Shown: piece by piece, positions 20,501-52,411 of the stretch
Layout: the number at the start of each line of letters is the position of its first letter
How positions within the stretch are numbered: the first letter of the stretch is position 1
Source: Sphaerolaimus hirsutus
Taxonomy: Eukaryota; Nematoda; Chromadorea; Monhysterida; Sphaerolaimidae
NCBI GenBank assembly: GCA_964036195.1
Contig: OZ038457.1
Coordinates: forward strand, 3,568,635 to 3,632,634
DNA: 64,000 nt
Direction: 5' to 3'
Program-made: the position numbers and the translations under genes
The notes under the pieces: generated by a model
Seen by the model: only the letters and a program-made list of their open reading frames with translations
The model's database searches: none
Told to the model about the DNA's origin: nothing

Positions 20501-22256
20501 AATAGCAAAATGTTCCAAAAACCAGACATAATCACCAAATCCAAAATTTCTATTTTCAGGCGGAGCGACATCCGGACGCCGATGCTCTATACGTTGAGCA
20601 AATTGATGTTGGTGAAGAGAAAGCCCGCACCGTGGTGTCTGGTTTAGTGAAGCACGTGCCACTTGAACAGGTTGGTGCATCACTCGTTTCCGGGGGTCTT
20701 GTGGATTTGGACCCCCAAGGGGGTTCAGATATTTACATGATTTATCGCTCCTCTGGGGGATAGATATTTGGTAGCTGGAAAATTTTCTGGGGGTCCAATA
20801 TTATAGGCCTTTACACATTGTGGAAGGCAGAAAGGGATAAAAATGGCCATAGTGCAATTTGTTTCTTCTTTTGATTTTTGACGAATTTATCTTTCGATTT
20901 TTGACTACTTTATTTTTTGACTTCTAACGTCGATCGCATGGTATACATTCACTCCCAGATGCAAAACGTCCCAGTAGTGGTCATGTGCAACCTGAAACCA
21001 GTCAAAATGAGGGGCATCGAATCCCAGGGAATGGTCATGTGCGCCAGCACCCCCGAAAAAGTTGAGATGCTTGTACCGCCGCAGGGGACTAAACCTGGTG
21101 ATAGGATCGTGTGTGAGGAGTATTTGGGTATGTTTGGGGTATTTTGGGTATGTGGGTATTCAGGGGTGTCCAAGGAGGGTTGTTAAAGGGGAGGTTTCCC
21201 CCAATCGGCCAGCTATCTACATATTTTGGTGGCAATCCCGCAACCTTTAAAGTGTGAAGTAAAGTGTCAAATATTATATTTACAAATTTGTCAAATCTCG
21301 TGCAAACTGTCATAATAAACAGTTCAGCAATATGGTTTTTTTATTTTGATTGACATTGCACACTTTAGTAAATATTTGACAGACTGCCCCTTGTACGCCG
21401 CTCCCGAACCAAAATTTTTACATACCATCACCTGAACCTCATCCCAAAATAGCTCAGCTGTGTATCTGGTGCTATTGACCCTGAAAAATCTTGAAAAACA
21501 TCTACTCCACACTAGGGTTCAAACGGGATTGACTTTTCGGGATCGGGATCGGGATTCACTTTTTGAGATTTCGGGATCGGGATCGGGATCGGGATTGGGG
21601 TTTCGGGATCGGGATCGGGATTGGTTTTTTGAGATTTCGGGATCGGGATCGGAATTGGGGTCACGGGATCGGGATCGGGATTGGGATAGGCATTTTTCCG
21701 GGATCGGGATTGGGTTCTAGGGATAGAGATTTTGGCCATTTTTCTGGCATTCACAGTTGTTCATAAAGGTCTCAAAATACTGTTGGAAGCCAGAAAAGTG
21801 CATAAAATTGACGCTGGGGGTTTGCATCCACTTTTTTGCATGCAAAAACCTCATTATTTCACTTTTTATAATTTCCACTAATTTTTCCGGGATCGGGATC
21901 CCGGACTTGGGAGTTTCTCGGGATCGGGATTTGAAAATTTTCGGGATCGGGATCGGGATTGGTCTTTTTGAGATTTCGGGATCGGGATCGGGACTGGTAA
22001 ATCCCGGAATTTCACGGGATCCCGTTTGAACCCTACTCCACACGCCAATTTACGCTATGAAATTTCAATCCCGACTTTTTTCGCAGGCACCCCCGACGCG
22101 GTGATGAATCCAAAAAAGAAAATCTGGGAGACGGTTGCGCCCGACCTGTGCGTGTCCGCCGAGGGCCACGCCGTGTTCAAGGGGTGTCCTTTGAAAGTGG
22201 AAAATGGCGCTGGGTTGATAAATGCGCCAAGTTTGAAGGGTGTGCCCATTAGATGA
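8532..22256 (+). CDS. MARS1: Methionyl-tRNA synthetase with C-terminal AIMP1/EMAP-II-like module (copy A)
   Basis: Charges tRNA-Met with methionine in the cytosol. Seventeen exons: 8532-8803, 9126-9329, 9404-9493, 9778-9907, 10230-10466, 11362-11460, 11727-11978, 13134-13295, 13964-14179, 14473-14499 plus 15212-15368 (split by a transposon), 15683-15809, 16394-16552, 17089-17202, 17555-17799, 20560-20670, 20959-21127, 22087-22256. About 980 codons. Visible motifs: class-I HIGH signature as PHLGTIIG in exon 1, zinc-knuckle cysteines CSNC, CPFC and CDKC in exons 3-4, VWFDA in exon 6, KMSKS as KFSKSRG in exon 7, and the QPW anticodon-domain motif in exon 9. After the core come a heptad-rich helix (exons 12-13), a Lys-rich linker and an EMAP-II tRNA-binding domain ([37 protein letters not shown]). 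No N-terminal GST domain is seen. Oddities: exon 10 is interrupted by an hAT-like element, and exons 8 and 9 are out of phase by one base. ATG 8486 lies upstream in another frame. Confidence 0.88.
10612..11063. mobile_element. hAT-like MITE, TACGCACAG-word family
   Basis: Lies in MARS intron 5. Left end GAGCCAGGCTCATTACGCACAG-like, right end ACGCACAG complement then GTACAGCTACAGGCTCT. Both ends carry repeats of TTACGCACAGA and its complement. Flanks are similar but not identical (TGGAAACA and TGGAAAAA), consistent with a degraded 8-bp duplication. An inner palindrome around TTTTCTACATATTT is also visible. Confidence 0.5.
12010..12170. repeat. Foldback repeat, CCAGACCCTGTAAA family
   Basis: In MARS intron 7. 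The unit starts CAGTCCCAGACCCTGTAAAA and ends with the complement TACAGGGTCTGGGATTGGCA. Between them are repeated GTCAAATGTCATG-type words and a central CGTAC turn. It is the same family that forms TSR intron 2. A CGGTA-word hAT-like element has inserted immediately after it. Confidence 0.75.
12179..12966. mobile_element. hAT-like MITE, CGGTACGGTA-word family
   Basis: Begins TAGGGTGGCAGACGGTACGG and ends AATTCTGCCACCCTA. Flanked by the 8-bp direct repeat GCACCCGG at 12171-12178 and 12967-12974. Each end is an array of ACGGTACGGTAAAT words about 150-170 bp long, inverted with respect to the other end, around an AT-rich core. It lies in MARS intron 7. No coding capacity. Confidence 0.9.
13534..13955. 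mobile_element. hAT-like MITE, CGGGATC-word family, at the MARS exon 9 acceptor
   Basis: Begins TAGGGTTCAAACGGGATTG and ends TCCCTTTTGAACCCTA, with the 8-bp duplication CATGGCAG at 13526-13533 and 13956-13963. The right-hand duplication ends in the AG used as the acceptor of MARS exon 9, so insertion pushed the old acceptor upstream and a duplicate now serves. The interior is arrays of GGGATCGGGATT words. Confidence 0.9.
14500..15203. mobile_element. hAT-like MITE inside MARS exon 10, AAACGTTTTTT-word family
   Basis: Begins TAGGGTTGGCCGATG and ends TTTTCCAACCCTA. The 8-bp duplication GTCGGTCT lies at 14492-14499 and 15204-15211. Both copies are coding sequence for the VVGLSTNI segment of MARS. 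Ends are arrays of AAAAAACGTTTTTT. The second MARS copy at 53070 has a single GTCGGTCT, that is, the empty site. Read straight through, the element puts stops in frame. Confidence 0.92.
15439..15589. mobile_element. Degenerate hAT-like MITE, GGAACCG-word family
   Basis: An array of GGAACCGAAC/GGTTCC words in MARS intron 10, ending AATTCCCAATCCTG. The counterpart in MARS copy B (53301-53461) keeps the better left end TGGGGTTGGGAACCG. Presence in both copies means the insertion predates the duplication. The target duplication is no longer clear (GTTGATAC versus GTTGAAGC). Confidence 0.55.
16132..16361. mobile_element. MITE with GGGCCCACACAC ends and 3-bp duplication
   Basis: In MARS intron 11. 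Left end GGGCCCACACACACTAGTTG, right end CAGTGTGTGGGGGCCC. Flanked by AAC at 16129-16131 and 16362-16364. MARS copy B lacks it and shows a single AAC in GCAACTATAACC. The 3-bp duplication is like PIF/Harbinger elements, but the assignment is tentative. Confidence 0.65.
17847..17950. repeat. TACCGTATTT poly-G/poly-C MITE
   Basis: In MARS intron 14. Inverted ends built of ACCGAAATATTTCC and GGAAATAAGGTA, with CCCCCCTC and GGGGGGTATTTCGAGG inside. MARS copy B reads straight through this position, so the copies differ by presence or absence. Confidence 0.6.
18043..20227. mobile_element. hAT-like MITE, CGGGTATCGGGT-word family, carrying a nested mariner-like MITE
   Basis: Begins TAGGGTTGGGAATTTCG and ends GGGTTCCCAACCGTA. 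Flanked by GTGTCTCC at 18035-18042 and GTGTCCCC at 20228-20235, an 8-bp duplication with one change. Ends are arrays of TCGGGTATCGGG. The core contains non-coding AT-rich DNA and the element at 19082-19999. It lies in MARS intron 14. Copy B has an unrelated element at nearly the same position. Confidence 0.85.
19082..19999. mobile_element. Tc1/mariner-like MITE with long terminal inverted repeats
   Basis: Ends are CATGGTCGGGCTGAAAAGTC and its complement, flanked by TA (19080-19081 and 20000-20001). The inverted repeats are nearly 270 bp each (19082-19350 and 19733-19999). No transposase is present. It is nested in the 18043-20227 element. Confidence 0.8.
21513..22035. mobile_element. hAT-like MITE, CGGGATC-word family (second copy)
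   Basis: Begins TAGGGTTCAAACGGGATTG and ends GATCCCGTTTGAACCCTA, with 8-bp duplication CTCCACAC at 21505-21512 and 22036-22043. In MARS intron 16, just before the last exon. Copy B has one TTCCACAC there, the empty site. Same family as 13534-13955 with a longer GGGATC array. Confidence 0.92.
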
Positions 22257-25050: not shown

Positions 25051-26172
25051 ATGAAGACTTTTACCACTGCTACAACGTTTGTGTTGCTGGTGCTGTGCAC
25101 CTTGCAAGTTCTTGAGGTGTGTTTATTATCAGGGGGCAGTCCCTGACCCTGTAAAATGTGATGTGTCATGTAAAAGACACTGTAAAGTATCCAAATCTTA
25201 AATTTTTGTAACTAAATCTTAAGATAACATAACATTTGGATACAAAAACATAAGATTAGGATACTTTACAGAATATTTTCCATGACACAAAACATTTTAC
25301 AGGGTCTTTTACATGACACATGACATTTTACAGGGTATTTTACATTTTACAGGGTCTTTTTCAATTTACAGGGTCTTTTAGAGGGTTTGGGACTGGCACT
25401 AGAGGGCTAGAATGTATTTTTATAGTGTCTTTTTACGAGAACGGTAGTGTATCTGCATATTATGCAAAATATACTATGCAAAAGAATTCTCGCAGACAAA
25501 ATGAATTCGTGTAAACCGAAACCGCAACACGCAGGCGGCGCACAATTGCGGTCCACATCCGGCTGAGAAGATATACGACATGGTTATGGAAAAACGTGAT
25601 TTCAGTTTGCACTTTGTTAGATTCCATTCCATAAGAGAGATTTTTTGGTCGACAAATTTTTCCGGTGTTATCTGTTGGACTGACAGCTAGCGCCATTTCT
25701 GCATGTAGACAAGTCAAGTGATAAGTGACAAGTCAAGTTTGACAACGTAGGTTAATTTAAAAAAAAAATACTTACTTGGCTTGATATTTTAAAAATAAAT
25801 ACCTAATGATCGCAGTAGTTCATTTACAGTTTTTTCTATCCCTATCTGACTTGTCTAATTGCGGAACTGGCAGCTGTAAGTAACCATAAGCGATGCAAAG
25901 GCACCCAGTGCCGGGAACCGGTACCGGTGCTGGTGCGGTGCCCTTCCGGTTCCGGTGCCATTTTTTCCACAACGCCTCAAGTTTTAGTTAATCGAATCTA
26001 ACTCCATTATTTTATTTCAACCCCAGGTCCGGATATGCACGGCGAAGCCTTGGAATCCTACGTAGCTGAACTTTTGGCAAGCGCACCGAAACTTCGCTCG
26101 GTTTACAAGCATCGATTGGCAGAATATCAAAATTGTCGGATCATGGCTGATGGGGGACATTTTGGCAGATAA
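25051..26172 (+). CDS. Candidate small secreted protein (3 exons)
   Basis: Not recognised. Exon 1 (25051-25116) encodes MKTFTTATTFVLLVLCTLQVLE, a typical signal peptide, followed by a GTGTGT donor. Exon 2 (25535-25595) encodes AAHNCGPHPAEKIYDMVMEK. Exon 3 (26027-26172), after a good CAACCCCAG acceptor, encodes PDMHGEALESYVAELL..., NCRIMADGGHFGR-stop. The phases 0 then 1 agree and give 90 residues with two cysteines in the mature part. The C-terminal GR could be an amidation signal, so a peptide precursor is possible. The exon 2 acceptor has a weak pyrimidine tract. Intron 1 holds a foldback repeat (25131-25399) and intron 2 a GGCACCGG-word half element near 25890-25970. Confidence 0.4.
25131..25399. 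repeat. Foldback repeat, CCAGACCCTGTAAA family
   Basis: Starts GGGGGCAGTCCCTGACCCTG and ends TTTGGGACTGGCAC. The two arms are AAAATGTGATGTGTCATG and its complement, with duplicated arm segments. Lies in intron 1 of the candidate secreted-protein gene. Confidence 0.7.
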
Positions 26173-29100: not shown

Positions 29101-29605
29101 CATAGAAGACATTTGAACACTGGGTAAACAAGCAATGATAATGTGAACTCAAATCACAGCAACAACATAATGATAAGCTCGATTTTAATGGACCCACGTC
29201 AGTTCAAATGATAAAATTAGGTCGTCCCGGTTTCCCAAAGTCTGGCGAGTGGGTAGATTCATTTGAACAACCCGGCTTTATCGGGCAGCCCGACACATGT
29301 CGCATTATAAAAAATGCAGTTTGCCCGATAACGTCGTGTTCTCCTTACACTGGCACCATGGCTGCCCTGGGGGTAGTCCCAGACCCCGTAAAATGCCCTG
29401 GAAAATGTCAAAAGTCATGCAAAATACCTACTCTGCAAAATAGCAAATGGCAAACGTTACAGGGTCCGGGACTGGCACCGGCCTAGCCAATCAAAATACA
29501 TACCACTGTGAGATTTCAAACTAAGCCAAAATTAGTAATGACGCTTTTCTAAATGACGCACCAGCCTAGCCAATCACTGGCACTGGCGCCACAGGCCCTG
29601 GCGAC
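26173..29605. repeat. Transposon-rich intergenic stretch
   Basis: No gene recognised. Contains poly-G MITEs of the TACCGTATTTC type (about 26769-26925, 27115-27225, 27327-27400, 27570-27650), the related element GTATATCCTCGAATAA at 28460-28752, and a foldback repeat at 29369-29485. From about 28740 rightward the sequence is matched, inverted, by 49740-52945. Confidence 0.6.
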
Positions 29606-31399: not shown

Positions 31400-31470
31400 C
31401 TGGCGACTTTTGTTTTAGCGCCAGCGCCACGATTTTCGTTCAGCGCCGGGAAAATTAAGTGTCTGCCTGC

Positions 31471-31743
31471 CAGTGTGGCGAAAGCGTATTTACGCTTACC
31501 CGAAATACCTGGGTAAATGGGTATTTATACTTACGCTTACGCTTTCGTAAAATATCCGTACGCTCTATTACGCTTTCCCGGCGGAAATACCCGGGTACTA
31601 AAAGCGTAAAAAATTTACGCTTACGCTTTTTTACGCTTTCCTAGGTATTTTAAAAATACCTTACGCTTCTAGTATCCATACCCATAATTTGGAAAGTGTA
31701 TTTACTTACGCTTTCCAAAAAAACCGGTATTTTAACAACTCTG
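31471..31743. mobile_element. hAT-like MITE, AAAGCGTAAGCG-word family
   Basis: Ends CAGTGTGGCGAAAGCG and CGGTATTTTAACAACTCTG, duplication CTGCCTGC at 31463-31470 and 31744-31751. The orthologous insertion in the inverted copy is 51492-51773 with GCAGGCAG duplications, so this insertion predates the copy split. Confidence 0.88.
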
Positions 31744-33918: not shown

Positions 33919-36900
33919 ATGTCCAAAATGTCTACTTATCCGCTATTCTCAATATTACTAGCAGCGGTCATTGTGTCGCTGCTTTGCACCGCTTCTAATG
34001 CATCAAATCAACTGAATTCAGTATTGAGGAGATATCCAAGGAGTTCACTTAATCCGGACCCCCCTAATTATTCAAAAAATCAAAATTATGGGGGTGGTAC
34101 CCAATTTGTGTTTGACCCCTGGAGCGAATGGACACCCTGTTCGTGTACATGCGGCCCTGGTTTGTGACGTTTTTTTGTTGTTTTACGTGAATTATTTTGA
34201 TCGAGTTGGAAAATGTGTAAAATATTAGATTTTTCAAAAGGATAGTTATAAAATCGAAAAGGTAGTTACGGTGTTTGGAAAATAAGCAGGTGATAATTAC
34301 TGCTAAGTAAAGTTTAAGTGTTAAGTCAAGTGAAAAGTATTTTCATTTGGAAGTATACTCGTCACTTATTTGCCACCTATAACCGTCTCAATACTCTTCT
34401 GGACACTCGTCCTTCACGGTAAAGGTTTCAGCCTCCTAACAAAACCACCTTGATAACCCCCCCCTAAAAACCCCCCTCAAAAACCCCCACCCCCAAAAAC
34501 AGGCACCAAATTCCGCGAGCGTGCCTGTCGCGTGGGGCTCTGCTCGGGGCCCATAAAAGAGCAAAGCGTGTGCTCCCATGGGCCCTGTCCCAATTGGGGC
34601 AAATGGACTCAATGGACAGGTGCCACTCCAAGACCCTGTAAAGTGCCCTGTAAAATGTCATATGTCAAGCAAAGCGTCAAAAGTCATGTAAAATGCCCTG
34701 GAAAATGGCAAACGTACGTTTGCCATTTTCCAGGGCATTTTACATGACTTTTGACACTTTGCTTGACATTTGACATTTTACAGGGCACTTTACAGGGTCT
34801 GGGAGTGCCCCTCAGATTGTTCCACGACTTGCGGACCGGGCTACAAAACACGGAGACGTTTCTGCTCCACTTATTATGGTTGCGAGGGAGAAGGGAGCGA
34901 AAAAGAGGAGTGCAATTTGGGCTCTTGCGCGATTTGGAGCCCTTGGAGCGTTTGGGGAAAATGCTCCGCTTTTTGTGACAGCGGAGAACAGAAAAGGACT
35001 AGGTGGGTGCGGCAGATGGAAGTTTATTTTTGGATTCACAGTTTTTTGGATAAATTGATCTATAGTATTGTTATACTTGGATTTGAAAATTAGATATACT
35101 CGGCAGACTTGATACTCTGCACCCGCTGTTATTTATGTCTCACGTTGGAAACGTGCCAATGATAATTAAAACATGCGATTTTTGTAAAAACATTTTTTAA
35201 ATTCATCAATGTAAATACACCCCAAAACCCCAACCCCCTTCCCCAAAAACACAGAACCTGCTCCATACCGGGCCAGTGCCCAGGGCAAGCGTCAGAAACA
35301 CAGGAATGCTCCAAAAATCCCTGCTGCTCTCAATGGAGCCCCTGGTCTTCGTGTTCCGTCACGTGCGGAGACAAGGGGGTGGAGACTAGAAATCGGAGAT
35401 GTATGATTGAGTTGCAGACTTATACTGGTGGTTATGCAAGTGAAACCGAGACTGAGGAAAGACCTTGTGGTAGTGAGTGGAGTTTTTTTTTTGGGGGGGG
35501 GGGTACTTTGAATTGGGCGTCTGGAAATTTGAGGGGGTATTTAAGGGTACACGATACATTGATAGGTACCGTCCATTAGAGGAACTACATTTTATTTAGC
35601 TTCAATCAAACCGGCTGCTCAACACAACAAAAAACTGGCAGTTAGAAAAGTCCACCAACTGCACCTTCACAATTGTATTAGTTGCGTGGACTTACTACAA
35701 CAACTACTACACAATGAATATGCTACATGAACACTGAACACTTTACACTGCCATATTTATCCCATTGAAAAAACTGAAAATGAAAAATCAATTTTTTCCT
35801 CATTACATTACATTGCTCATACTTTCTATTTGCGGATTTTCCATGTGACTTTGTACTTTGTATATCACCCAGACCCAATACAAAAAAATGTTCCGAAAAA
35901 GTCACCCCTCCATTCACCCTTAGCCCCAACCCCAGAAAAACCCCAACCCCCCAGGCAAGCCACCCCCCTGTTCCCAATGGTCCGACTGGGGCAAATGGTC
36001 GCCCTGCGACAAAACCTGCGGCGGGGGTGAAAAAACCCGGACGCGCACCTGCAACCCCCCCGGCGCCGTGTGCGACGGGCCCAGCGAGGACATTATCCGC
36101 TGCAATCAAGACCCCTGCCCGGGGTGGAACGTTTGGGGGTCTTGGTCGGCTTGCAGTGTCACCTGCGGGGGTGGCGAGAGAAAGAGACAGAGACAGTGCG
36201 ATGTGGCTGGTTGGTTGAGTTTTTTTTTTTTGGGGGGGGGGGGGTGAGAGCGCTAGAAGGCTGATGCCTACGATGGCAAAAACTCCGGAAAAAAGTAATT
36301 AGGTAAATAAAAATTTTAAATGTTTTTCCAATGTGATATTTGAACAAATTCCCAAAATCAGTTATCGAATTTTCGAATTTCTCTAGATAAAAATCGATTT
36401 TTGATTGTCTTTTTCTAGGGATGAAATATTTGCGGCTTTCCATGGCCCCCCCCCCCCCAAAATGGCGCCATGCGTCAATTCCCCACCACCCCATTCTCAC
36501 ACAACCCCAAATAACCCCCCAGGAAAATGCACCGGCGACAACACCGAAACCGAGTCATGTTCGCCCGACGAGTGTCCCAATTGGTCCACATGGGGTCCCT
36601 GGGGACCCTGCAGCGAGTCCTGCGGAGGGGGGTGGCAAAAAAGAACCAGGGTCTGCTCTGTGACGGGCCTTTGTGACGGGGATGACTTTGAGAAGAGACT
36701 TTGCAATGAACACCTGTGCCCTAATATTGGAGAATGGCAAGCTTGGTCACAGTGTGACGCGCCCTGTGACGGGGGAAGTACGACTAGGACAAGGATTTGC
36801 TTGACTGATAATGTGTTTTGTGCGGCTGGAGGGCAGAATGCTGATGCTGGTTGGTTAGAGTTGAATGTTTTTAGGGTTTTGTGTTATAGGAATATTCTAA

Positions 36901-39900
36901 TTAACACACATTTTGCACTAAAATTTACCGTAGACCACCTGAATAATATAATCAAAATATATTTGAAAATTCATCACAATATTTATACATTTGTTTCGTT
37001 GTGACATACCGTATTTATTCAAATAGAACGGCACACGTTCAAAATAACGACACCTCCAATAGAATGGCAGGTAAAAAATCGATGAAAAATCCAAGCGGCA
37101 GCTTCCAGACAGAGATCCAAATTCTCGCAAACCGTACAACTATCAATAAAAAATGCACACGCCCACAAAAAAAAAACAAAAATAAAAAATAAAAAACCCA
37201 GGCGCGTGTCAATGTTCGGAAACCTTGGACGAGGGCCAACAATGCAATTCGCATTACTGCGCCAAATGGAAAGAATGGGGTGCGTGGACCCCCTGCACGG
37301 AACCCTGCGAAGGGGGTGAAAGGCAGAGAACTAGGAAATGCGACAGCGACCCCTCGTTTTGTGTTGGGGCTAATAAGGATGATGTCAGCTGTGTCTGTGT
37401 GGGAGATGCTAGTGAAAGTGGTCAGTGAATTTTGGAGGTTTTATTGAAGGGGTGTGACATTTTTGAGCTGTTTGGCTAGTGGTGAGTCGAATTGTTGAAA
37501 ATAATAAATAGGTAAATGAAGTTAAGTTGACAGTTGAGCTTGTGAATGACAAGTATTTTCACAAAATTACAAGTTTACATAAAAAATAATTAAGTAAATA
37601 TTAACTAGTATTTAAGTAACCAATATCCAATGCCGCACTTTGTTATGCCGTCGTGTTAAGTAGTGATGTAAAGGCACCGGGGCACCGGTGCCCCGGTGCT
37701 GGGCACCGAAGGGCACCAGCACCGGTGCTGGTGCGGTGCCATTGCAATCTTCACGGGTGCCATGCCGGTGCCGGTGCCATTTTTTTCAGAATAGCACCGG
37801 TGCCGGTGCGGTGTGGTGCCATTTTTTTGCCGGTGCCAAAGGTGCTAGCACCAGGGCAAAGTAAAAGGCACCGGGAAAGGCACCGGCCAAGGCTTCATGT
37901 GCTGTGCAATTTTGTCCATAGTATGTGCTTATTCATATTTCAAAAACCAGCGATATATTTACCCAACCGTTTTTGCCTATTTTGTAAACCTCCCATCAAA
38001 TAAATATAAATCAAACCTACTGTGAAATTCCTTATACCCGATATGTGATCTGATGAGCGAATCGAAAATTTTGTTGAATTTTAAATCATTTTTATATTTT
38101 ATATTTATCTTACTTTTTTGTTCAAAATTTGTTGTCAGTTTATGACAGAGATAGTTCCATACTCTGTACAGCAACGACTCCGATCAGTAGACAATAGTGG
38201 CTATGGACATTGTAGTGAATTAAATATTTTATCTTTCATTTGTAACCATTGTAATTGCTTCATAAAAGTGATTGCCACATCATTCTGATCATTTAAAGTG
38301 CTCGACCATCAAAATCGGTTGAAAATTCATGGAAATATGCACTTCCAAAGGTGAGACCACTGAGAAACTGCCCGATATTTACTTCAGAAATTCCAGCCCG
38401 GTGCGGTGCCTTTCGGTGCTAGCACCGGCAACCCGCCGGTGCCCTTCGGTGCCGGTGCCATTTTTTCCAAAAGGCACCGGTGCCGGTGCGGTGCGGTGCC
38501 ATTTTCTGGCCGGTGCCCCAGGGTGCCAGGTGCCCTTTTTATGCGTTGGCAAAGGTGCCGGTGCGGTGCGGTGCCATTTTTCCCGGTGCCTTTAACATCA
38601 CTAGTGTTAAGTTCCGAATTCTTGGTGTTAAAAATAAATTCTGTCACGGAAATAGAAGTTGTAGTAACTTAGTCAGTGAAAAAGAAATAAAATTTCAAAC
38701 CGACAAAACACAACCAATTTTCAGTTCCAACTCAACCACCACAAAAAGACTCACTTCACTCCAACCCCCCCCCCCCCCCAGAATCCTGCAACACTCATGC
38801 CTGCCCCTCCTGGGCGCCATGGGGCGCTTGGGCGCAATGCTCCGCCTCCTGCGGAGGGGGGTCCAAACAGCGCACGCGCGACTGCACCACGGACACGTCG
38901 CACTGCACGCCCGCAAAAGCCAGACTAGACGCCACCTGCAAATGCGTAGGGCTGGACAAGGGCACGGACATTTGCAACAAACACCTGTGCCCTACTTGGG
39001 CCCCCTGGGGGGCCTGGGGGGCCTGTAGTGCCCCCTGTGCTGGGGGGTCTAAGCAGAGGATTAGGGAGTGTCTGATAGATGCCGATTATTGCACCCCCGA
39101 TAAAATGGGGGATGCGGCCTGTGTTTGTGATGGAGAGGGGAATGAAGATGCCCCGTGTAATGAGCACGCTTGCGCTGGATGGGAGGTGGGTGCCTTTTTG
39201 TAATTTTTGCGACTTGATAAGTGATAAGAAAAGCGTAGTGATGTGAAATGTTGTAAGTGTTAAATCGAGTGACAAGTGACCTTTAAGGGGTCGAAAGAGA
39301 GCCTGTTATTTATGATGCTTGTCACGTTGACTTCACTTGCCACTGACTGGACATATTTATCACGTATACCTTGACTGACTTTTCTTCCCATTTGTCTACT
39401 CGCTGAATCGGTGCTAACGTACATATTTTATCACGTGACAATTTGAATTCATAAAATCACGGTAACATTCATACACAATCTCAAACCCCCCAAACCCCTT
39501 TACCACCCCCAAATACCCCCCCCCCCTCTCAGGCGTGGACTGCCTGGGGCCAATGTTCCGTGCCCTGCGGCGGGGGCACGCAAAACCGCGAGCGCCAGTG
39601 CCAAACCGACCCGAACGTGTGCGCCGGCTCCGACACCAACTCGGAGTCGTGCCAGTGCGACGACGGATTGGGCGGCGAACAGAGGGACTGCAATACGCAC
39701 TTTTGCGCACAGTGGAGCGAGTGGGGTGCCTGGGGAGGCTGTAGTAAGACTTGCGGGGGTGGTGAGTGGGGGGGTTCTTGGCACCACGCCAATCAGTTTG
39801 CGAGCGGAATTTTGGCAACTGGTGAACCCGTCAATTGCTGCTATTGGGAATCAAAATGATTGAATATATTGCAAAATTATGTAATGCTACTAATTATATG

Positions 39901-42900
39901 CAAAATCATATAGCAAGTTATGCAAAATTACAGCAGCGCATCAAAAGCTCGATGTGTACATTTTAAAAGCTCAGGGTGCATGTATATTCAGGGTTCGATT
40001 ATAACTTTTACTCACATAAATTTTGGCAAATCTTAAAGTTGATTTTCCAAAACCTCTCAACTTTGTGCACGAAATAAGAGTCAGAAAATCACAACACATG
40101 CACCTATTTATATCCTCATTGAAACCCCCCACACACCACAACCCCCCCCCAAAAGCCTAAACCCCCCTCACAGGCACGGAACAGCGCACGCGCACGTGCA
40201 ACTACGACACAACCTACTGCGTAGGTTCCAAACTAACCTCAGACCCTACCTGTCAATGCGAAGGCTCAGCAACAGATGAACAACCTTGCTGCACCTACGA
40301 CTGTCCAGCTTATAAATCGTGGGCTTCCTGGGGAACCTGTTCTGTGACCTGTTCCAAGGGTGAACAAGAGAGAAGTAGGGTGTGTCAGGTTGATAGTGCT
40401 CATTGTGTGGGGGCTAATGCTAATAATCCAGAGTGCCAGTGTGATGATGGGAAAGGTGAGGGTTTTTGGGGGGTTGGGGGGTTTAGGGGTGTCTGGATTT
40501 GGGGATAGCATTTCTCGGTCATTGTGAAATTCACTTTAAGTGGCAAATAGAATACCACATACCAGTCAAGGTGTGAAATTGCAGGACAAATTTTGAGGGA
40601 TACATAAATAAATACAACACATTTGTCACCTGATAAGCTACGACTACAGCAAATATAAAATTCGAACATAAAATTCCACTCCAAAATTAACTACCTACAT
40701 GAAAAAATGGATAACACAGATCTCCAATTTCTTACGGTCAGCATTTTACATGGGCAGATTATGAACCCCAAATATTTGATAACATTTCATATTAAACGAA
40801 AGGAACACTGAACCTATAAGTCTTATTCAATGTACTACGGTATTCCACCCCCCCCCCCCCCAGGCACCGAGGTAAAAACCTGCGACGCGGGCCCCTGCTA
40901 CCAATGGGAATCCTGGCAGTCCTGGACAGAATGCTCCGTAGTTTGCGGAGGGGGGTCGCGCAACCGCGCGCGCAAATGTCCCCAGCCAGGGGCCTGTCCC
41001 GGTCTCACTGAAGAGTCCAGCGTGTGCAATCAGACCCCCTGTCCAGATTGGGGCAGTTGGGCACCCTGGTCCAGTTGCAGTGCTACGTGCGGGGGTGGCC
41101 AGAGGGTTAGGACTAGGACGTGTCCCTTGCTTGGGGGGTGCTCGCCTGGTGGGTGGGGTGTAGTGATGGAAAAAGCGCCAGGACTTTGGCGCCAAGCGCC
41201 AAAAGCGCCATGGCGCTTTTCCGAACCCCAGCGCCAAGCGCCAATGGCGCCAGAGGAAAATGGCGCCAAGCGCCAAAAGCGCCATGGCGCTTTTCTAGAC
41301 CACGGCGCCAAGCGCCAATGGCGCCAGAGGATATTGGCGCCAAGCGCCAATAGCGCCAGCGCCAAAAATTTTTTGCTTCTCATATATGCGGCAATGCTGA
41401 TGCACTGCTATTAATTTGTTTTTGGCGCAAGATACATGTCAACTGCAGTCACTTTTGTTCTTGTTGTCTTGATATTTTGCAGCTGGGTGTTTGGGCTAAG
41501 CTAAGTATAGCACACCATCTGTAAAAAGTGCTAAGATTTTTTTGGTGTTTTTTAAAATTACTTCTGGAATTTAGTTGTTTTTCCCCAAAAATAATTGTCG
41601 AATTTTCAAATGAAGTTTTCAATTTTTTTTGGAATACTTTCGATTTTTCTACTAGGATATTGCAGTTTCAAGTTTTGCTAGTCACTTTTGACCACAGGAT
41701 TTTGAGGTTTCAAATTTTGGATTGCCATTGTTGGAATGGCTTCAGAAAGTGATTCCACACCCTGTAAAATCAAGTGTCAAATGTCAAGAAGTAAATGTGA
41801 TGTAAAATGTCAATCAAAATAAAAATGACAAATTTTTGATTCAACTTTTGACATTTCACATGACACTTAATAAAGTTGTATTTATGAAATATTGGATGAT
41901 GTTTATTACTCAACTTTACACTTTACAGGGTCCTTTGACCCTGCTCAAACAAAACTGCAAGGAACGAGCTCAGTATAGTGATTGAGCTAAAACCTATGTG
42001 AAGAGTGTTACCAGTCCGATGAATAGTCACATAAAGCCTTACATAATTCGGATTAGATGAGACAAATGTTGAATACCCATGCACTCACAAGGAAATTGTT
42101 TAAAAAGTAATCAAGAATAGGGTATGTTGATCTGGGAATACACTGACAGTAGCACATATAAATACTTAACAGGTCTTTCTGCATAAAATAATGATGAATT
42201 TTGAGTACTTCTTGGCGCTTTTTTGGCGCTTTTTAAAACACCAGCGCCACGCGCCAATGGCGCCACAGCAAAAAGGCGCCAAGCGCCAAAAGCGCCATGG
42301 CGCTTTTTGCTTTGGCGCTAGCGCCAGGCGCCAGCGCCATGGCGCTTTTCCATCACTAGTGGGGTGCTTTTTTGGGGGTGTTTGAAATAGAAATTTTAGA
42401 ATTTCACTTTAAAATTTTTGAGGATAGTTTTCACTGTTACGAATTATTTACTATTTACTCTTGAGAATTTTCGAACGTTTTAGACCAGTTTGAAAAGTTA
42501 TGAATGCTCTAAGAATGCTTACTGGGTTTTGAATGTGGGCGCTACTTTAATTTGTATTAAACATATTTTTACAACACTAGTTCGGAACAAAATCACAAGC
42601 TAAGAAAGATTGAAAACATCTGAGAATCTAAAAATTCCTGTCTGCCTACGTTAAAATAAATGGATTACCTATTCAATCAATGGATAAAAAAAACACCTAG
42701 GTTTAACCCCACACCACGCCAAATAATATAAAAAAGCCACCCACCCCCCACACAATTACCCCCAACCCCCCCCCCCCCAGGCACCGACCTAGAAGTAGAC
42801 AACTGCGGACCGGACCCCTGCCCAGTGTGGGCCCAATGGTCCACCTGGGGGTCCTGCTCTGCAACGTGTGGAAACGGCATCCAAGTACGCACCAGGGAGT

Positions 42901-43033
42901 GTAATTCCAAGGGGGAATGCAGGGGGGCCCCCGAACAGGAAGAGGAGTGCTTTATTGGGCCCTGTGCCTTGAATATTGAGTGGAGTGGGTGGAGCCCTTG
43001 CACCCAGACTTGTGGGGGTGGGGTGAAGACTAG
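33919..43033 (+). CDS. Secreted protein with 19 thrombospondin type-1 repeats (exons 1-12 of 13)
   Basis: Exons: 33919-34159, 34503-34619, 34816-35002, 35255-35469, 35955-36209, 36523-36849, 37202-37420, 38782-39185, 39533-39761, 40174-40455, 40864-41148, 42781-43033. All twelve join in phase. With exon 13 (268 bp, seen at 23227 and 61869) the protein is 1093 residues. A signal peptide ([20 protein letters not shown]) is followed by a short linker and then TSRs head to tail, with no other domain and no membrane segment. Each has the W-x2-W-x2-C-S-x2-C-G core, for example [12 protein letters not shown] and [14 protein letters not shown]. TSRs 8-14 are a longer subclass with an extra Cys pair (SCVCVGD, SCQCDDG, TCKCVG). 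TSRs bind glycosaminoglycans and matrix partners and are often C-mannosylated. Most introns enter the CGGG loop in phase 1. Exon 13 is lost in the N gap. Start: in-frame ATG at 33919. Confidence 0.9.
34620..34815 (+). repeat. TSR intron 2, consisting entirely of a foldback element (introner-like)
   Basis: The 196-bp intron is almost one perfect hairpin with its centre at CGTACG (about 34715). It starts GTGCCACTCCAAGACCCTG and ends CAGGGTCTGGGAGTGCCCC then TCAG. CAG occurs directly before the donor GT and again as the acceptor. Removing GT..CAG gives TGG ACA GAT TGT TCC, which restores the TSR frame WTQWTDCSTTCG exactly. The inverted copy (48688-48933) has the same hairpin plus about 50 bp of duplicated arm. 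Confidence 0.85.
37661..38603. mobile_element. hAT-like MITE, GGCACCGG-word family
   Basis: In TSR intron 7. Begins TAGTGATGTAAAGGCACCGG and ends GGTGCCTTTAACATCACTA with 8-bp duplication GTGTTAAG at 37653-37660 and 38604-38611. Ends are arrays of GGTGCCGGTGCGGTGCC. The other TSR copy (near 45110) has a single site and no element. Confidence 0.92.
41161..42358. mobile_element. hAT-like MITE, GGCGCC-word family, in TSR intron 11
   Basis: Begins TAGTGATGGAAAAAGCGCC and ends GGCGCTTTTCCATCACTA, with 8-bp duplication GTGGGGTG at 41153-41160 and 42359-42366, starting 12 bp after the exon 11 donor. The copy at 63420-63434 has one such site and no element. A degraded foldback repeat (about 41757-41945) is nested inside. 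Confidence 0.9.
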
Positions 43034-43533: not shown

Positions 43534-43733
43534 NNNNNNNNNNNNNNNNNNNNNNNNNNNNNNNNNNNNNNNNNNNNNNNNNNNNNNNNNNNNNNNNNNN
43601 NNNNNNNNNNNNNNNNNNNNNNNNNNNNNNNNNNNNNNNNNNNNNNNNNNNNNNNNNNNNNNNNNNNNNNNNNNNNNNNNNNNNNNNNNNNNNNNNNNNN
43701 NNNNNNNNNNNNNNNNNNNNNNNNNNNNNNNNN
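43534..43733. other. Assembly gap (200 N)
   Basis: The left side ends in the poly-C tract expected immediately before TSR exon 13 (compare 62137-62150 reversed). The right side resumes in sequence matching the flank of TSR exon 9 (about 39850-39920 reversed). The gap therefore joins two unrelated points of the TSR gene, in opposite orientation. Confidence 0.9.
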
Positions 43734-43965: not shown

Positions 43966-46900
43966 CACCCCCGCAAGTCTTACTACAGCCTCCCCAGGCG
44001 CCCCACTCGCTCCACTGGGCGCAAAAGTGCGTATTGCAATCCCTCTGCTCGCCGCCCAATCCGTCGTCGCACTGGCACGACTCCGAGTTGGTGTCGGAGC
44101 CGGCGCACACGTTCGGGTCGGTTTGGCACTGGCGCTCGCGGTTTTGCGTGCCCCCGCCGCAGGGGAGGGAGCATTCGCCCCAGGCGGTCCACGCCTGAGA
44201 GGGGGGGTATTTGGGGGTGATAAAGGGGTTTTGGGGGTTTGAGATTGTGTATGAATGTTACCGTGATTTTATGAATTTAAATTGTCACGTGATAAAATAT
44301 GTACCTTAGCACCGATTCAGCGAGTAGAAAAATAAGTCAGTCAAGGTATACGTGATAAATATGTCCAGTCAGTGGCAAGTGAAGTTCAACGTGACAAGCA
44401 TCATAAATAACAGGCTCTCTTTCGACCCCTTAAAGGTCACTTGTCACTCGATTTAACACTTACAACATTTACATCACTGCGCTTTTCTTATCATTTATCA
44501 AGTCGCAAAAATTACAAAAAGGCACCCACCTCCCATCCAGCGCAAGCGTGCTCATTACACGGGGCATCTTCATTCCCTTCTCCGTCACAAACACAGGCCG
44601 CATCCCCCATTTTATCGGGGGTGCAATAATCGGCATCAATCAGACACTCCCTAATCCTCTGCTTAGACCCCCCAGCACAGGGGGCGCTACAGGCCCCCCA
44701 GGCCCCCCAGGGGGCCCAAGTAGGGCACAAGTGCTTGTTGCAAATGTCCGTGCCCTTGTCCAGCCCTACGCATTTGCAGGTGGCATCTAGTCTGGCTTTT
44801 GCTGGCGTGCAGTGAGATGGGTCCGTGGTGCAGTCGCGCGTTCTCTGTTTGGACCCCCCGCCGCAGGAGGCGGAGCATTGCGCCCAAGCGCCCCATGGCG
44901 CCCAGGACGGGCAGGCATGCGTGTTGCAGGATTCTGGGGGGGGGGGGGTTGGAGTGAGGTGAGTCGTTTTGTGTTGGTTGAGTTGGTACTGAAGGCTGGT
45001 CGAAAAAAAATGGTAGTGTTTTGTCGGTTTGAAATTTTTTTTTTCACTAAGTTACTAAAACTTCTACTATGACAGAATTTATATTTAACACCAAGAATTC
45101 GAAACTTAACAGGACGGCATAACAAAGTGCGGCATTGGCTCTTGGTTACTTAAATACTCGTTAATATTTACTTAATTATTTTTTATGTAAACTTGTAATT
45201 TTGTGAAAATACTTGTCAACTCAACTGTCATATAAGCTCAACTGTCAACATAACTTCATTTACCTATTTATTATTTTCAACAATTCGTCTCATCACTAGC
45301 CAAACAGCTCAAAAATTTCCCCCCAAAAATGTCACACCCATTCAATAAAACCTCCAAAATTCACTCACCACTTTCACTAGCATCCCCCACACAAACACAG
45401 CTGACATCATCCTTATTAGCCCCAACACAAAACGAGGGGTCGCTGTCGCATTTCCTAGTTCTCTGCCTTTCACCCCCTTCGCAGGGTTCCGTGCAGGGGG
45501 TCCACGCACCCCATTCTTTCCATTTGGCGCAGTAATGCGAATTGCATTGTTGGCCCTCGTCCAAGGTTTCCGAACATTGACACGCGCCTGGGTTTTTTAT
45601 TTTTTTTTATTTTTTGGGGCGTGTGTATTTTTTATTGATAGTTGTACGGTTTGCGAGAATTGTCTGGAAGAGTCTGGAAGCTGCCGCTTAGATTTTTCAT
45701 CGACTTTTTACCTGCCATTCTATTGGAGGTGTCGTTTTTTGAACATGTGCCGTTCTATTTAAAAAAGTACGGTATGTGACAACGAAACAAATGTAAATAT
45801 TGTGATGAATTTTTAAATATATTTTGAGTATATTATTCAGGTGGTCTACGGTAAATTTCAGTGCAAAATGTGCGTTAATTAGAATATTCCTAGACCACAA
45901 AACAACCCCAAAACCTTCTACTCTAACCAACCAGCATCAGCATTCTGCCCTCCAGCCGCACAAAACACATTATCAGTCAAGCAAATCCTTGTCCTAGTCG
46001 TACTTCCCCCGTCACAGGGCGCGTCACACTGTGACCAAGCTTGCCATTCGCCAATATTAGGGCACAAGTGTTCATTGCAAAGTCTCTTCTCAAAGTCATC
46101 CCCGTCACAACGGCCCGTCACAGAGCAGACCCTGGTTCTTTTTTGCCACCCCCCTCCGCAGGACTCGCTGCAGGGTCCCCAGGGACCCCATGTGGACCAA
46201 TTGGGACACTCGTCGGGGGAGCATGACTCGGTTTCGGTGTTGTCGCCGGTGCATTTTCCTGGGGGGTTATTTGGGGTTGTGTGAGAATGGGGTGGTGGGG
46301 AATTGCGGCATGGCGCCGGTTTGGGGGCCATGGAAAGCCGCAAATATTTCATACTTTTTTCCGGAGATTTTGCCATCGTAGGCGGCAGCCTTCTAGCGCT
46401 CTCAGCCCCCCCCCCCAAAAAAAAAAATCAGCCAACCAGCCACATCGCACTGTCTCTGTCTCTTTCTCTCGCCACCCCCGCAGGTGACACTACAAGCCGA
46501 CCAAGACCCCCAAACGTTCCACCCTGGACAGGGGTCTTGATTGCAGCGGATAATGTCCTCGCTGGGCCCGTCGCACACGGCGCCGGGGGGGTTGCAGGTG
46601 CGCGTGCGGGTTTTTTCACCCCCGCCGCAGGTTTTGTCGCAGGGCGACCATTTGCCCCAGTCGGACCATTGGGAACAGGGGGGTGGCTTGCCTGGGGGGT
46701 TGGGGGTTTTTCTGTGGTAAGGCTAAGGGTAAGTGGTGGGCTGACTTTTTCGGAACATTTTTTGGATTGGGTTTGGTGCTTTACAATGTTCAAAGTCACA
46801 TGGAAAATTCGCAAATAGTAAAAATTAGCATTGTAATGTACCGTATTTCCTCGAAATACCCCCCCCTCGAAATACCCCCCTCGTTTGACCCCCCCCCCCC

Positions 46901-49673
46901 CAACTCGAGACCACTATGAAAAAATCACCCCCCGTCGAAATACTCCCACCCCCCCCAGATTGAGTGTAAACAGAACGTATAATACATGACAAATACTGCA
47001 GTTTGTGTTCTGCGTAGTGCAGAACACACGTTAAAACAATGTTGGAATCACGTTAGAACAGTGTTTATACCATCTACGTACTAATATAAGTATACAGGAG
47101 TTGATACATGTCAGTTATTGATGCAATTTTCTACCCCAGCGCACATCACAAACCACGATTTTGTACTAGGATTTCAAAAAAATTTCCTGTGAAACAATAA
47201 CCCCCCCTCGAAATACCCCCCTCGTTTAAACCCCCCCCCCCTCTCGGGAGCACTATGAAACAATCACCTCCCGGGGGGTATTTCGAGGAAATACGGTATA
47301 TGTAATGAGAAAAAAATTTTTTTAATGGGATATGGCAGAGTAAAGTGTTCATGCAGCATATTCATTGTGAAGTGTGCAGTCAGTTGACTTTTCACGCTGC
47401 CAGTTTTTTTTGTGTTGAGCAGCCGGTTTGATTGAAGCTAAATAAAATGTAGTTCCTCTAATGGACGGTACCTATCAATGTATCATGTACCGTGAAATAC
47501 CCCCTAAAAAATCCAGACGCCCAATGAAAGGACCCCCCACCCAAAAAAAAAACTCCACTCACTACCACAAGGTCTTTCCTCAGTCTCGGTTTCACTTGCA
47601 TAACCACCCGTATAAGTCTGCAACTCAATCATACATCTCCGATATCTAGTTTCCACCCCCTTGTCTCCGCACGTGACGGAACACGGAGACCAGGTGCTCC
47701 ATTGTGAGCAGCAGGGATTTTTGGAGCATTCCTGTGTTTCTGACGCTTGCCCTGGGCATTGGCCGGGTATGGAGCAGGTTCTGTGTTTTTGGGGAAGGGG
47801 GTTGGGGGTTTTGGGGTGTATTTACGATGATGAATTTAAAAAATGTTTTTACGTTAATCGTTTGCTTTAATTATCATTGGCACCTTTCTAACGTGAGACA
47901 TAAATGTCTGCGAGTGTCTGCGAGTATCAAGTCTGCCGAGTATATAGAAAGAGTGCAAAATTGCACTTGCCTCAGGCGGGAATCGAACCCGCACCTCTCG
48001 TATAGAACACGAGTGCCCTAACCACTAGACCACAGAGGCGGCTGGGCTCTTCACTATTAGGGGCTGACATGCTGCGTCGGCAATGCCCTTAACACCTCGC
48101 GGCGTTGCGGAGATGTCATCCCTGACATCGTGTTGATGTAGGGGTAAGCAGCGGATGGATATCCGTGCTGTTTTAAAGACCGGTGTTCGGACCACACTCG
48201 GCCAGCCATGTGTGATGGTCAGGCGTCGTCGTATGATCCACGGTCGCGGCACCAGAAAGAGTGCAAAATTGCACTTGCCTCAGGCGGGAATCGAACCCGC
48301 ACCTCTCGTATAGAACACGAGTGCCCTAACCACTAGACCACAGAGGCGGCTGGGCTCTTCACTATTAGGGGCTGACATGCTGCGTCGGCAATGCCCTTAA
48401 CAATATCTACCTAATTTTCAAATCCAAGTATAACAATACTATAGATAAATTTATCCAAAAAACTGTGAATCCAAAAATAAACTTCATATCCCGCACCCAC
48501 CTAGTTCTTTTCTGTTCTCCGCTATCACAAAAAGCGGAGCACTTTCCCCAAACGCTCCAAGGGCTCCAAATCGCGCAAGAGCCCAAATTGCACTCCTCTT
48601 TTTCGCTCCCTTCTCCCTCGCAACCATAATAAGTGGAGCAGAAACGTCTCCGCGTTTTGTAGCCCGGGCCGCAAGTCGTGGAACAATCTGGGGGGCACTC
48701 CCAGACCCTGTAAAGTGCCCTGTAAAATGTCAAATGTCAAGCAAAGTGTCAAAAGTCATGGAAAATGCTATGGAAAATGGCAAACGTACGTTTGCCATTT
48801 TCCAGGGCATTTTACATGACTTTTGACACTTTGCTTGACATTTGACATTTTACAGGGCACTTTACATGACTTTTGACACTTTGCTTGACATTTGACATTT
48901 TACAGGGCACTTTACAGGGTCTGGGAGTGGCACCTGTCCATTGAGTCCATTTGCCCCAAGTGGGACAGGGCCCGTGGGAGCACACGCTTTGCTCTTTGAT
49001 GGGCCCCGAGCAGAGCCCCACGCGACAGGCACGCTCGCGGAATTTGGTGCCTGTTTTTGGGGGTGGGTGTTTTTGAGGGGGGTGTTCTTGAGGGGGGTTT
49101 GTAGGGGGGGGGGGGTTATCAAGGTGGTTTTGTTAGGAGGCTGAAACCTTTACCGTGAAGGACTAGTGTCCAGAAGAGTATTGAGACGGTTATAAGTGGA
49201 TTTATAAGTGACAGGTAAATTTATAAGTGACGAGTATACTTCCAAATGAAAATACTTTTCACTTGACTTAACACTTTAACTTTACTTAGCAGTAATTATC
49301 ACCTGCTTATTTTCCAACCACCGTAACTACCTTTTCGATTTTAAAACTATCCTTTTGAAAAATTCAGTATTTTACACATTTTCCAACTCGATCAAAGTAA
49401 TTCACATAAAACAAAAAAAACACATCACAAACCAGGGCCGCATGTACAAGAACAAGGTGTCCATTCGCTCCAGGGGTCAAACACAAATTGGGTACCACCC
49501 CCATAATTTTGATTTTTTGAATAATTAGGGGGGTCCGGATTAAGTGAACTCCTTGGATATCTCCTCAATACTGAATTCAATTGATTTGATGCATTAGAAG
49601 CGGTGCAAAGCAGCGACACAGTGACCACTGCTAGTAATGTGGAGAATAGCTGATAAGTAGACATTTTGGACAT
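43966..49673 (-). CDS. TSR gene, inverted second copy, exons 1-9 only
   Basis: Exons: 49433-49673 (ATG at 49673), 48934-49050, 48501-48687, 47566-47780, 46437-46691, 45932-46258, 45369-45587, 44530-44933, 43966-44194. Each is exactly as long as its counterpart in the + copy, and all phases are kept. The encoded protein begins [20 protein letters not shown] and carries the signal peptide and the first TSRs through CSKTCGGG. Protein changes are few (for example P to Q and I to T in the signal peptide, N to T in exon 2, [10 protein letters not shown] region changes in exon 8), while introns differ by transposon insertions. Exons 10-13 are missing because the contig ends at 43734. It is a divergent duplicate or the other haplotype of the 33919-43033 gene. 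Confidence 0.88.
46841..47297. repeat. TACCGTATTT poly-G/poly-C MITE in TSR intron 4
   Basis: Left end CCGTATTTCCTCGAAATACC, right end GGTATTTCGAGGAAATACGG, each next to TA. The interior is poly-C/poly-G runs with an AT-rich core that includes a further internal copy. It is absent from the corresponding intron of the + copy (35470-35954). Confidence 0.75.
47969..48039 (-). tRNA. tRNA-Arg(UCU)-like gene, copy 1
   Basis: The reverse complement folds as a 71-nt cloverleaf. The acceptor stem is GCCTCTG/CTGAGGC with one T-T mismatch. The A box is TGGTCTAGTGG and the B box GGTTCGATTCC. The anticodon stem CTCGT/ACGAG closes loop GTTCTAT, so the anticodon is TCT (arginine, AGA). A run of T's for termination is not obvious. 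It may be a tRNA-derived repeat rather than a functional gene. Confidence 0.75.
48277..48347 (-). tRNA. tRNA-Arg(UCU)-like gene, copy 2
   Basis: Identical 71-nt cloverleaf sequence, 308 bp from copy 1. The flanks are also duplicated (from AAGAGTGCAAAATTGCACTT through GGCAATGCCCTTAAC), so the pair is a tandem duplication of a roughly 150-bp tRNA-bearing segment with about 160 bp between. The pair is absent from the + TSR copy. Confidence 0.75.
48688..48933 (-). repeat. TSR intron 2 in the inverted copy, foldback element
   Basis: Same hairpin element as 34620-34815, with GTGCCACTCC at the donor and CCAG as the acceptor. It is 246 bp because a segment of the right arm (TTTTGACACTTTGCTTGACA...) is repeated. 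Splicing still restores the same frame. Confidence 0.85.
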
Positions 49674-51773: not shown

Positions 51774-52411
51774 GCAGGCAGACACTTAATTTTCCCGGCG
51801 CTGAACGAAAATCGTGGCGCTGGCGCTAACAAAACAAAAGTCGCCAGGGCCTGTGGCGCCAGTGCCAGTGATTGGCTAGGCTGGTGCGTCATTTAGAAAA
51901 GCGTCATTACTAATTTTGGCTTAGTTTGAAATCTCACAGTGGTATGTATTTTGATTGGCTGGGCCGGTGCCAGTCCCGGACCCTGTAACGTTTGCCATTT
52001 GCTATTTTGCAGAGTAGGTATTTTGCATTACTTTTGACATTTTCCAGGGCATTTTACAGGGTCTGGGACTACCCCCAGGGCAGCCATGGTGCCAGTGTAA
52101 GGAGAACTCGAATTTATCGGGCAAAGTGCATTTTTTATAATGCGACATGTGTCGGGCTGCCCGATAAAGCCGGGTTGTTCAAATGAACCTGCCCACTCGC
52201 CAGACTTTGGGAAACCGGGACGACCTAATTTTATCATTTGAACTGAAGTGGGTCCATTAAAATCGAGCTTATCATTATGTTGTTGCTGTGATTTGAGTTC
52301 ACATTATCATTGCTTGTTTACCCAGTGTTCAAATGTCTTCTATGTATAAATATATACCTACGTGCGAATGCAAAATCACAAAATGGTGGTTTTCAAAATA
52401 TGATATAGGTA

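What the first reader, a model, noticed from the sequence alone, without database searches (positions are those of the whole stretch)
34620..34815. A foldback transposon that is exactly one intron, with seamless splicing (introner candidate)
TSR intron 2 is nothing but a hairpin element of a family dispersed at 12010, 25131, 29369, 51963 and 62547. CAG stands on both sides. The donor GT is the element's own first two bases and the acceptor CAG is the second flanking copy, so splicing restores the TSR codons perfectly. This is how introners are expected to create introns: one splice site in the element, one in the target duplication. The same intron in the second gene copy has an arm duplication, so the element is still changing in structure. 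The long hairpin would also bring the splice sites together in the RNA.
Basis: partly seen in the sequence, partly recalled or inferred. Interest (0 to 1): 0.87.

Follow-up and report, generated by a model that had tools for sequence, protein, structure and literature searches.

The report
Palindromic transposon insertion acting as intron
A short self-complementary mobile element appears to have landed inside a coding exon of an animal-type gene and become its second intron, a fairly recent birth of an intron by a mechanism already known from other organisms but not yet confirmed here with RNA or with relatives.

Summary
Intron 2 of a multi-TSR gene (34620-34815) is a near-perfect palindrome (92-nt arms, 97% complementary) of a dispersed hairpin family. 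Removing it restores the TSR motif WTQWT|DCSTTC. The second gene copy (48933-48688) has the same intron with a 50-bp arm duplication. Between copies dN/dS is 0.07 over nine exons of equal length, so the intron must be removed in both. No other TSR core in the gene has an intron there. Each copy has three private arm mismatches, so the hairpin was perfect when the copies split: a young insertion.

Best explanation: a non-autonomous palindromic DNA transposon inserted in sense orientation into a coding exon; its first bases supply GT, its C-rich tip a pyrimidine tract, the flanking CAG the AG.

Weak points: the 3-bp target duplication is only suggestive (one extra pyrimidine in the TSR copy; strict P 0.078). 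Its splice signals are the poorest in the gene. None of eight other counted insertion loci is shown to be a whole intron, so an introner family is not shown. No RNA, relative or genome was available; the organism is unknown.

The parts
34620..34815 (+). TSR intron 2 of gene copy 1 (GT...AG, phase 1), consisting of the hairpin element plus one extra T and CAG
34624..34715 (+). left arm of the palindrome; carries 3 private substitutions
34716..34807 (+). right arm of the palindrome; holds branch-point-like TTTAC motifs 24 and 36 nt before the 3' splice site
34620..34623 (+). left tip GTGC, supplies the 5' splice site GT
34808..34812 (+). right tip CCCC plus one extra pyrimidine (T here, C in copy 2), a C tract as before several acceptors of this gene
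34617..34619 (+). CAG, exon side of the 5' splice site, putative first copy of a 3-bp target duplication
34813..34815 (+). CAG, 3' splice site, putative second copy of the target duplication
48688..48933 (-). same intron in gene copy 2, 246 nt, with a 50-bp duplication in the left arm and 3 private changes in the right arm
33919..43033 (+). TSR gene copy 1, 12 exons modelled by hand-picked junctions, signal-peptide-like N-terminus (by eye), TSP_1 domains, not complete at its 3' end
43966..49673 (-). TSR gene copy 2, first nine exons
12010..12177 (-). family copy (ends good to a few bases) nested in a longer methionyl-tRNA synthetase intron read by eye as 11979-13133
25131..25407 (-). family copy with expanded arms, not placed relative to a gene
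29369..29479 (-). family copy, short; same insertion as 51966-52077 through the segmental duplication; not placed relative to a gene
51966..52077 (+). duplicate of the 29369 insertion
62545..62711 (+). family copy inside the intron after exon 12 in the TSR piece at the right end of the window (placement by eye from the frames), antisense to the gene; the paralogous intron at about 43000-43140 lacks it
21229..21381 (+). decayed family copy with TTG on both sides; paralogue near 60300; probably in a synthetase intron
41755..41935 (+). decayed family copy inside TSR intron 11 (41149-42780)
4078..4245 (+). decayed family copy, flanks do not match; not placed relative to a gene
5932..6070 (+). decayed family copy, weak match (E 6e-4), tips not recognised; not placed relative to a gene

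Best explanation
A non-autonomous, wholly palindromic DNA transposon (a foldback-type MITE with tips GTGCCA...TGCCCC) inserted in sense orientation into a coding exon of a TSR gene, at ACAG^ATTG in the TSR core, and was from then on removed as a GT-AG intron. The element brings the donor GT and a C tract; the flanking CAG, probably the second copy of a 3-bp target duplication, brings the acceptor AG, so the message is unchanged. Shown: the palindrome, the family, the exact restoration of the frame, selection on the protein in both copies, the position not shared within the gene, the perfect hairpin at the split of the copies. Inferred: splicing at these sites, the target duplication, direct insertion into an uninterrupted exon, and that the stem, which begins 4 nt after the donor and ends 8 nt before the acceptor, helps to bring weak splice sites together.
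For: Whole-intron hairpin with no residual other sequence but one pyrimidine. Of the 19 introns examined in the two copies, the two intron-2 copies have the longest exact inverted repeats, 40 nt and 65 nt; the next is 26 nt in an 874-nt intron. The family occurs elsewhere in the window with the same tips. Exons 1-9 differ by 47 synonymous and 13 non-synonymous changes, dN/dS 0.07, with equal exon lengths; retaining the intron gives stops in both copies. The phase-1 position WT|DC is not shared with any of the 16 other TSR cores listed by the script, nor with the first TSR, which the script's pattern missed and I read by eye; the nearest is intron 8, six residues earlier and in phase 0. All three arm mismatches in copy 1 are private to its left arm and all three in copy 2 to its right arm, so the arms were identical at the split. 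Flanking trimers favour a 3-bp duplication, also without the TSR copy (12/15, P 0.017).
Against: No RNA, no orthologue and no whole genome. Intron 2 has the weakest donor (-0.65 bits; next lowest 1.46) and the weakest acceptor (-7.43, in copy 2 -5.32; next lowest 3.2) of the introns scored, on a matrix of only ten introns. An internal acceptor at 34795 (-1.1) and a donor inside exon 2 at 34532 (2.42) score higher, but neither is in frame; 40% of all GT and 39% of all AG in the window score as well as its sites. The survey of introners reports that observed introners are generally spliced more efficiently than other introns (PMC9860276), which sits ill with weak sites. The 3-bp duplication needs one extra base in the TSR copy; strict P is 0.078, and the register was chosen after a scan. 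CAG|GT...CAG| is also what a good intron looks like without any duplication, although 0 of the 10 other copy-1 introns show CAG on both sides. None of the eight other counted loci is shown to be a whole intron.
Confidence: 0.75

Rival explanations
1. An older intron stood at this position; the element inserted into it later, and deletions removed all of the old intron sequence, so that the element only took over a pre-existing intron.
For: Other copies of the family do lie inside longer introns (12010, 62545, 41755), so insertion into introns is common here. No orthologue was available to exclude an older intron.
Against: No base of other intron sequence remains on either side except one pyrimidine; both tips agree with family tips. 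The position is not shared with other TSR cores of the gene. Deletion on both sides exactly to the tips, before the copies split and while the hairpin was still perfect, is a demanding sequence of events.
Confidence: 0.15
2. A true introner family (an extension of the best explanation, not exclusive of it): the element has made many whole introns in this genome, in sense orientation.
For: GT at the tip and the C-rich other end suit this gene's introns, 5 of 10 others of which end in six or more C straight before AG. Introners with one splice site in the element and one recruited are published (PMC9860276).
Against: Only one of nine counted insertion loci in the window is shown to be a whole intron; the family looks mainly like an ordinary MITE.
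Confidence: 0.25
3. The hairpin is not spliced reliably: the gene tolerates it, or uses exon skipping. Introns 1 and 2 are both phase 1, so joining exon 1 to exon 3 keeps the frame.
For: Poorest splice signals among the introns scored and a 92-bp duplex covering the branch-point region. Exon 2 has 117 nt between two phase-1 introns, so it can be skipped in frame.
Against: Exon 2 itself is conserved between copies (2 synonymous, 1 non-synonymous difference), and exon 3 has 5 and 0.
Confidence: 0.1

Closest known systems
Introners derived from DNA transposons (Gozashti et al. 2022, PMC9860276; parts 1-3 of 7 and found passages read)
   Same: Non-autonomous element, often with inverted repeats, that becomes a whole intron; one splice site in the element and one recruited from the target side is a described arrangement; message length unchanged in most families.
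   Different: Those families have five or more copies as introns in one genome; here one insertion event is shown to be a whole intron. The whole element is a palindrome of 92-nt arms (the words palindrome and hairpin were not found in that paper's main text). The survey reports introners in only two animal groups and efficient splicing of them.
Amoebophrya introner elements (PMC7789003; found passages read)
   Same: Direct repeats of 3-5 nt at the borders, inverted repeats able to fold and bring exon borders together.
   Different: Their inverted repeats are 8-20 nt and the introners were defined among non-canonical introns; here the stem covers almost the entire intron and the borders are GT-AG.
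Newly gained introns of Daphnia pulex (PMC4202315; abstract and outline seen)
   Same: Young introns in an animal; many carry internal direct repeats, which the abstract links to staggered double-strand breaks, as could be the case for the 50-bp duplication of copy 2.
   Different: The abstract names no repeated palindromic element as their source.
Mechanism of DNA transposons making introns (Huff et al. 2016; not held; recalled, and seen only as a reference)
   Same: As recalled, the general scheme: one splice site from the element, one from the target duplication.
   Different: As recalled, algal families with very many copies; the details could not be read here.

Membership tests
Introner (transposon-derived intron family) | the element makes up the whole intron, to near both splice sites | tested here: met
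Introner (transposon-derived intron family) | several non-paralogous introns in the genome are copies of the same element | tested here: inconclusive
   None of the 8 other counted insertion loci in 64 kb is shown to be a whole intron, 4 of them not placed relative to a gene; no genome held
Introner (transposon-derived intron family) | intron absent at the orthologous site in relatives | not testable with these tools
   the collections on hand are described as viral and prokaryotic, and no protein search for relatives was made; only the comparison among TSR cores of the gene was possible
Introner (transposon-derived intron family) | spliced in RNA | not testable with these tools
   no RNA data; selection on both sides of the intron is indirect support
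MITE / non-autonomous DNA transposon | terminal inverted repeats and dispersed copies without coding capacity | tested here: met
   inverted repeats and dispersed copies of about 110-280 bp; coding capacity judged from the size only
MITE / non-autonomous DNA transposon | target site duplication of fixed length | tested here: inconclusive
   3-bp model 15/18 (P 0.008) with one extra base allowed, 13/18 (P 0.078) without; register chosen after a scan
MITE / non-autonomous DNA transposon | an empty site at a related locus | tested here: inconclusive
   The paralogous intron lacks the 62545 copy and holds CCAA once, but the next bases CTGCC could be a remnant of the tip
Mirtron | a hairpin whose ends coincide with the splice sites | tested here: met
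   Stem base 4 nt and 8 nt from the splice sites; the arms are much longer than in mirtrons as I recall them
Mirtron | small RNAs made from the excised intron | not testable with these tools
   no small RNA data

The most novel reading that the evidence does not exclude
An animal introner family made of whole-length palindromes in which RNA structure stands in for poor splice signals: the stem joins donor and acceptor, and the excised intron is a ready-made 92-bp double-stranded RNA, a mirtron-like source of small RNAs against the very transposon family that made it.
Probability: 0.1. Interest if true: 0.85.

Novelty: new member of a known kind. Interest (0 to 1): 0.55.

Why it matters
The one broad survey read here found introners in two animal groups only (PMC9860276), so a clear, young intron born from a transposon in an animal-type gene is worth having. 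This case offers two diverged gene copies with the same new intron, a hairpin still nearly perfect, and a testable account of which bases come from the element and which from the target. It also poses a question that can be answered directly: can a stem that covers nearly the whole intron make up for weak splice sites?

Tried and rejected
Whole genome of the window: not held. Exact scans for a 20-nt family end motif: 0 places in viral contigs; one in genome contigs, in a Bacteroidales contig, where by eye no second arm follows within the 301 bases read and the stretch looks coding, so taken as chance. These collections are viral and prokaryotic, so their silence says little. Longer target duplications (4, 5 bp) gave no better fit than 3 bp with the first five insertions, and 8 bp did not reach the listing threshold. 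With those five the 3-bp model gave P 0.05 with the extra base skipped and 0.42 without; it became clearer only when the 21229 copy was added. The 4078 copy, whose flanks do not match (TTA/AGC), was kept in a seven-copy test (15/21, P 0.001; strict 13/21, P 0.056); without the TSR copy the values are 12/15 (P 0.017) and, with 4078, 12/18 (P 0.003). None of these P values is corrected for the choice of register and length. Two decayed copies (41755, 5932) were dropped from these tests because their tips are not recognisable, and weaker profile matches (11587, 54811, 918-1094) were not counted as copies, although 11587 (E 8e-4) is about as strong as 5932 (E 6e-4), which was kept because it also matches the end motif. 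The empty-site reading at 43000-43140 was not used as proof, for the reason given in the membership table. Whether the two TSR copies are alleles, haplotigs or paralogues was not resolved: the piece 24702-43533 lies between two 200-N gaps and its copy is in inverted orientation. The introns of the methionyl-tRNA synthetase gene were not modelled one by one, so no count of whole-element introns beyond the TSR gene is offered. No protein search for relatives of the TSR gene was made.

Full report
What is there. At 34620-34815 lies a stretch that begins GTGCC and ends CCCCTCAG. Its core 34624-34807 is a palindrome of two 92-nt arms, 97% complementary, with no spacer. The stretch 34600-34830 folds as RNA at -168 kcal/mol, against a mean of -56.5 for 200 shuffles, none of which folds as well. 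The window is eukaryotic in character (my reading) and no whole genome is held for it.

The gene. Joining 12 exons from 33919 to 43033, with junctions picked by hand to keep the frame, gives one open frame of 1004 residues with a signal-peptide-like start (by eye) and many thrombospondin type 1 repeats. Pfam TSP_1 scores E 6e-124 with 14 stretches, and the repeat that holds the junction is the best stretch of TSP1_ADAMTS. Intron 2 splits WTQWT|DCSTTC in phase 1, and removing exactly 34620-34815 gives the spacing seen in other repeats. The script listed 17 TSR cores; the first repeat of the protein escaped its pattern and was read by eye. No other core has an intron at this place; the nearest is intron 8, six residues earlier and in phase 0.

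Both copies are under selection. The second copy on the minus strand (49673-43966) has nine comparable exons, all equal in length to those of copy 1. The difference is 47 synonymous against 13 non-synonymous changes (dS 0.108, dN 0.0076, ratio 0.07). Exons 2 and 3, on either side of the intron, have 7 synonymous and 1 non-synonymous change. Intron 2 is 196 nt in copy 1 and 246 nt in copy 2, and retention meets stop codons in both. So the intron must be removed in both copies, although this is inferred from selection and not seen in RNA.

The family. Copies with the same tips lie at 12010, 25131, 29369 (duplicated at 51966) and 62545. A profile search adds decayed copies at 4078, 21229 (paralogue near 60300), 41755 and 5932, the last with E 6e-4; weaker matches at 11587, 54811 and 918-1094 were left out. 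The typical element runs GTGCCAGTCCCAGACCC ... GGGTCTGGGACTGCCCC. The 12010 copy sits about 30 nt inside a synthetase intron that I read by eye as 11979-13133. The 62545 copy sits in antisense in another TSR intron (placement by eye), and the 41755 copy in TSR intron 11. The 21229 copy probably lies in a synthetase intron; the remaining four loci were not placed relative to a gene. None of the eight other counted loci is shown to be a whole intron.

Age. Lined up from the centre, the four arms of the two copies agree except for three changes found only in the left arm of copy 1, three found only in the right arm of copy 2, and the 50-bp duplication in the left arm of copy 2; a seventh substitution lies in the right tip. 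Within the arms there is no left-right difference shared by both copies. Hence the hairpin was perfect when the copies diverged. If mutations came at the same pace before and after, with three per copy since the split and none before, the insertion predates the split by less than about one further such interval (Poisson, 95%; my calculation). Exchange between arms would weaken this bound.

Flanks. If the element ends at the fourth C, three bases on each side compare as CGG/CAG, CTA/CTG, CCG/CAG, CAA/CAA, TTG/TTG and, for the TSR copy with one extra pyrimidine skipped, CAG/CAG. This is 15 of 18 matches (mean 10.0 over re-pairings, P 0.008). Adding the 4078 copy gives 15/21 (P 0.001) and 13/21 (P 0.056). 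Leaving the TSR copy out gives 12/15 (P 0.017), or 12/18 (P 0.003) with 4078. A first test with five insertions, over several lengths and registers, gave P 0.05 at best. A 3-bp duplication is therefore likely but not settled.

Splicing. In this gene 5 of the 10 other introns of copy 1 end in six or more C straight before AG, and others have C-rich ends; the element's tip CCCC fits that habit. Yet the donor CAG|GTGCCA and the acceptor are the weakest of the introns scored, on a matrix built from the ten others. About 40% of all GT and AG in the window score as well; an internal acceptor at 34795 and a donor in exon 2 at 34532 score higher but are out of frame. Branch-point-like TTTAC motifs lie 24 and 36 nt before the 3' end, inside the stem. 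The stem begins 4 nt after the donor and ends 8 nt before the acceptor, so pairing may bring weak sites together; this is inference, with a published parallel in Amoebophrya (PMC7789003, passages read). The same duplex could also hide the branch point. Against an easy fit, the survey of introners found them generally spliced more efficiently than other introns (PMC9860276).

Verdict. It goes too far in two points: the CAG duplication is not certain, and the family is not shown to be an introner family. Introners from DNA transposons with one recruited splice site are known (PMC9860276, parts 1-3 of 7 and passages read), so the kind is not new. What is unusual is a full-length palindrome, and a case in an animal-type gene; that survey found introners in two animal groups only. 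The paper searches on introners, hairpin or palindromic elements and mirtrons listed 7 to 24 papers each, several of them cut from longer lists, and I recognised none from title and abstract opening as describing this family; this says little, since the organism is unknown and subscription papers are mostly not held.

Noticed in passing
24502-24701 and 43534-43733; 24702-43533: Two 200-N gaps bracket a piece whose TSR gene is inverted relative to the copy in 43734-64000; the piece may be misoriented or a second haplotype. By eye from the frames, 43734-64000 itself holds a TSR 5' half, a synthetase copy and another TSR 3' part.
   Followed up: partly
about 37661-38603: Insertion in TSR intron 7 of copy 1 with ends TAGTGATG.../...CATCACTA and GTGTTAAG on both sides (8 bp, hAT-like by recall); absent from copy 2, where the site reads ctGTTAAG.
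   Followed up: partly
47968-48039 and 48276-48347 (-): Two tRNA-Arg(TCT) matches in a tandem repeat inside TSR intron 3 of copy 2, absent from copy 1; possibly a tRNA-derived SINE.
   Followed up: partly
TSR introns, e.g. 40840-40863, 42760-42780: Five of the ten other introns of copy 1 end in six or more C straight before AG, rather than in a U-rich tract.
   Followed up: partly
41160-42360: Apparent composite insertion in TSR intron 11 with GCGCCA-rich repeats near both ends and a decayed hairpin-family copy inside; the paralogous stretch 63080-63422 is much shorter.
   Followed up: no
57102-58064 (-): Open frame of 320 aa with a weak reverse transcriptase match (E 1.4e-5, below the curated cut-off); BEL/Pao-like by recall.
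   Followed up: no
about 8.6-23 kb (+): Methionyl-tRNA synthetase gene; one exon matched by Pfam tRNA-synt_1g, the rest and a C-terminal EMAPII-like domain recognised by eye only.
   Followed up: no
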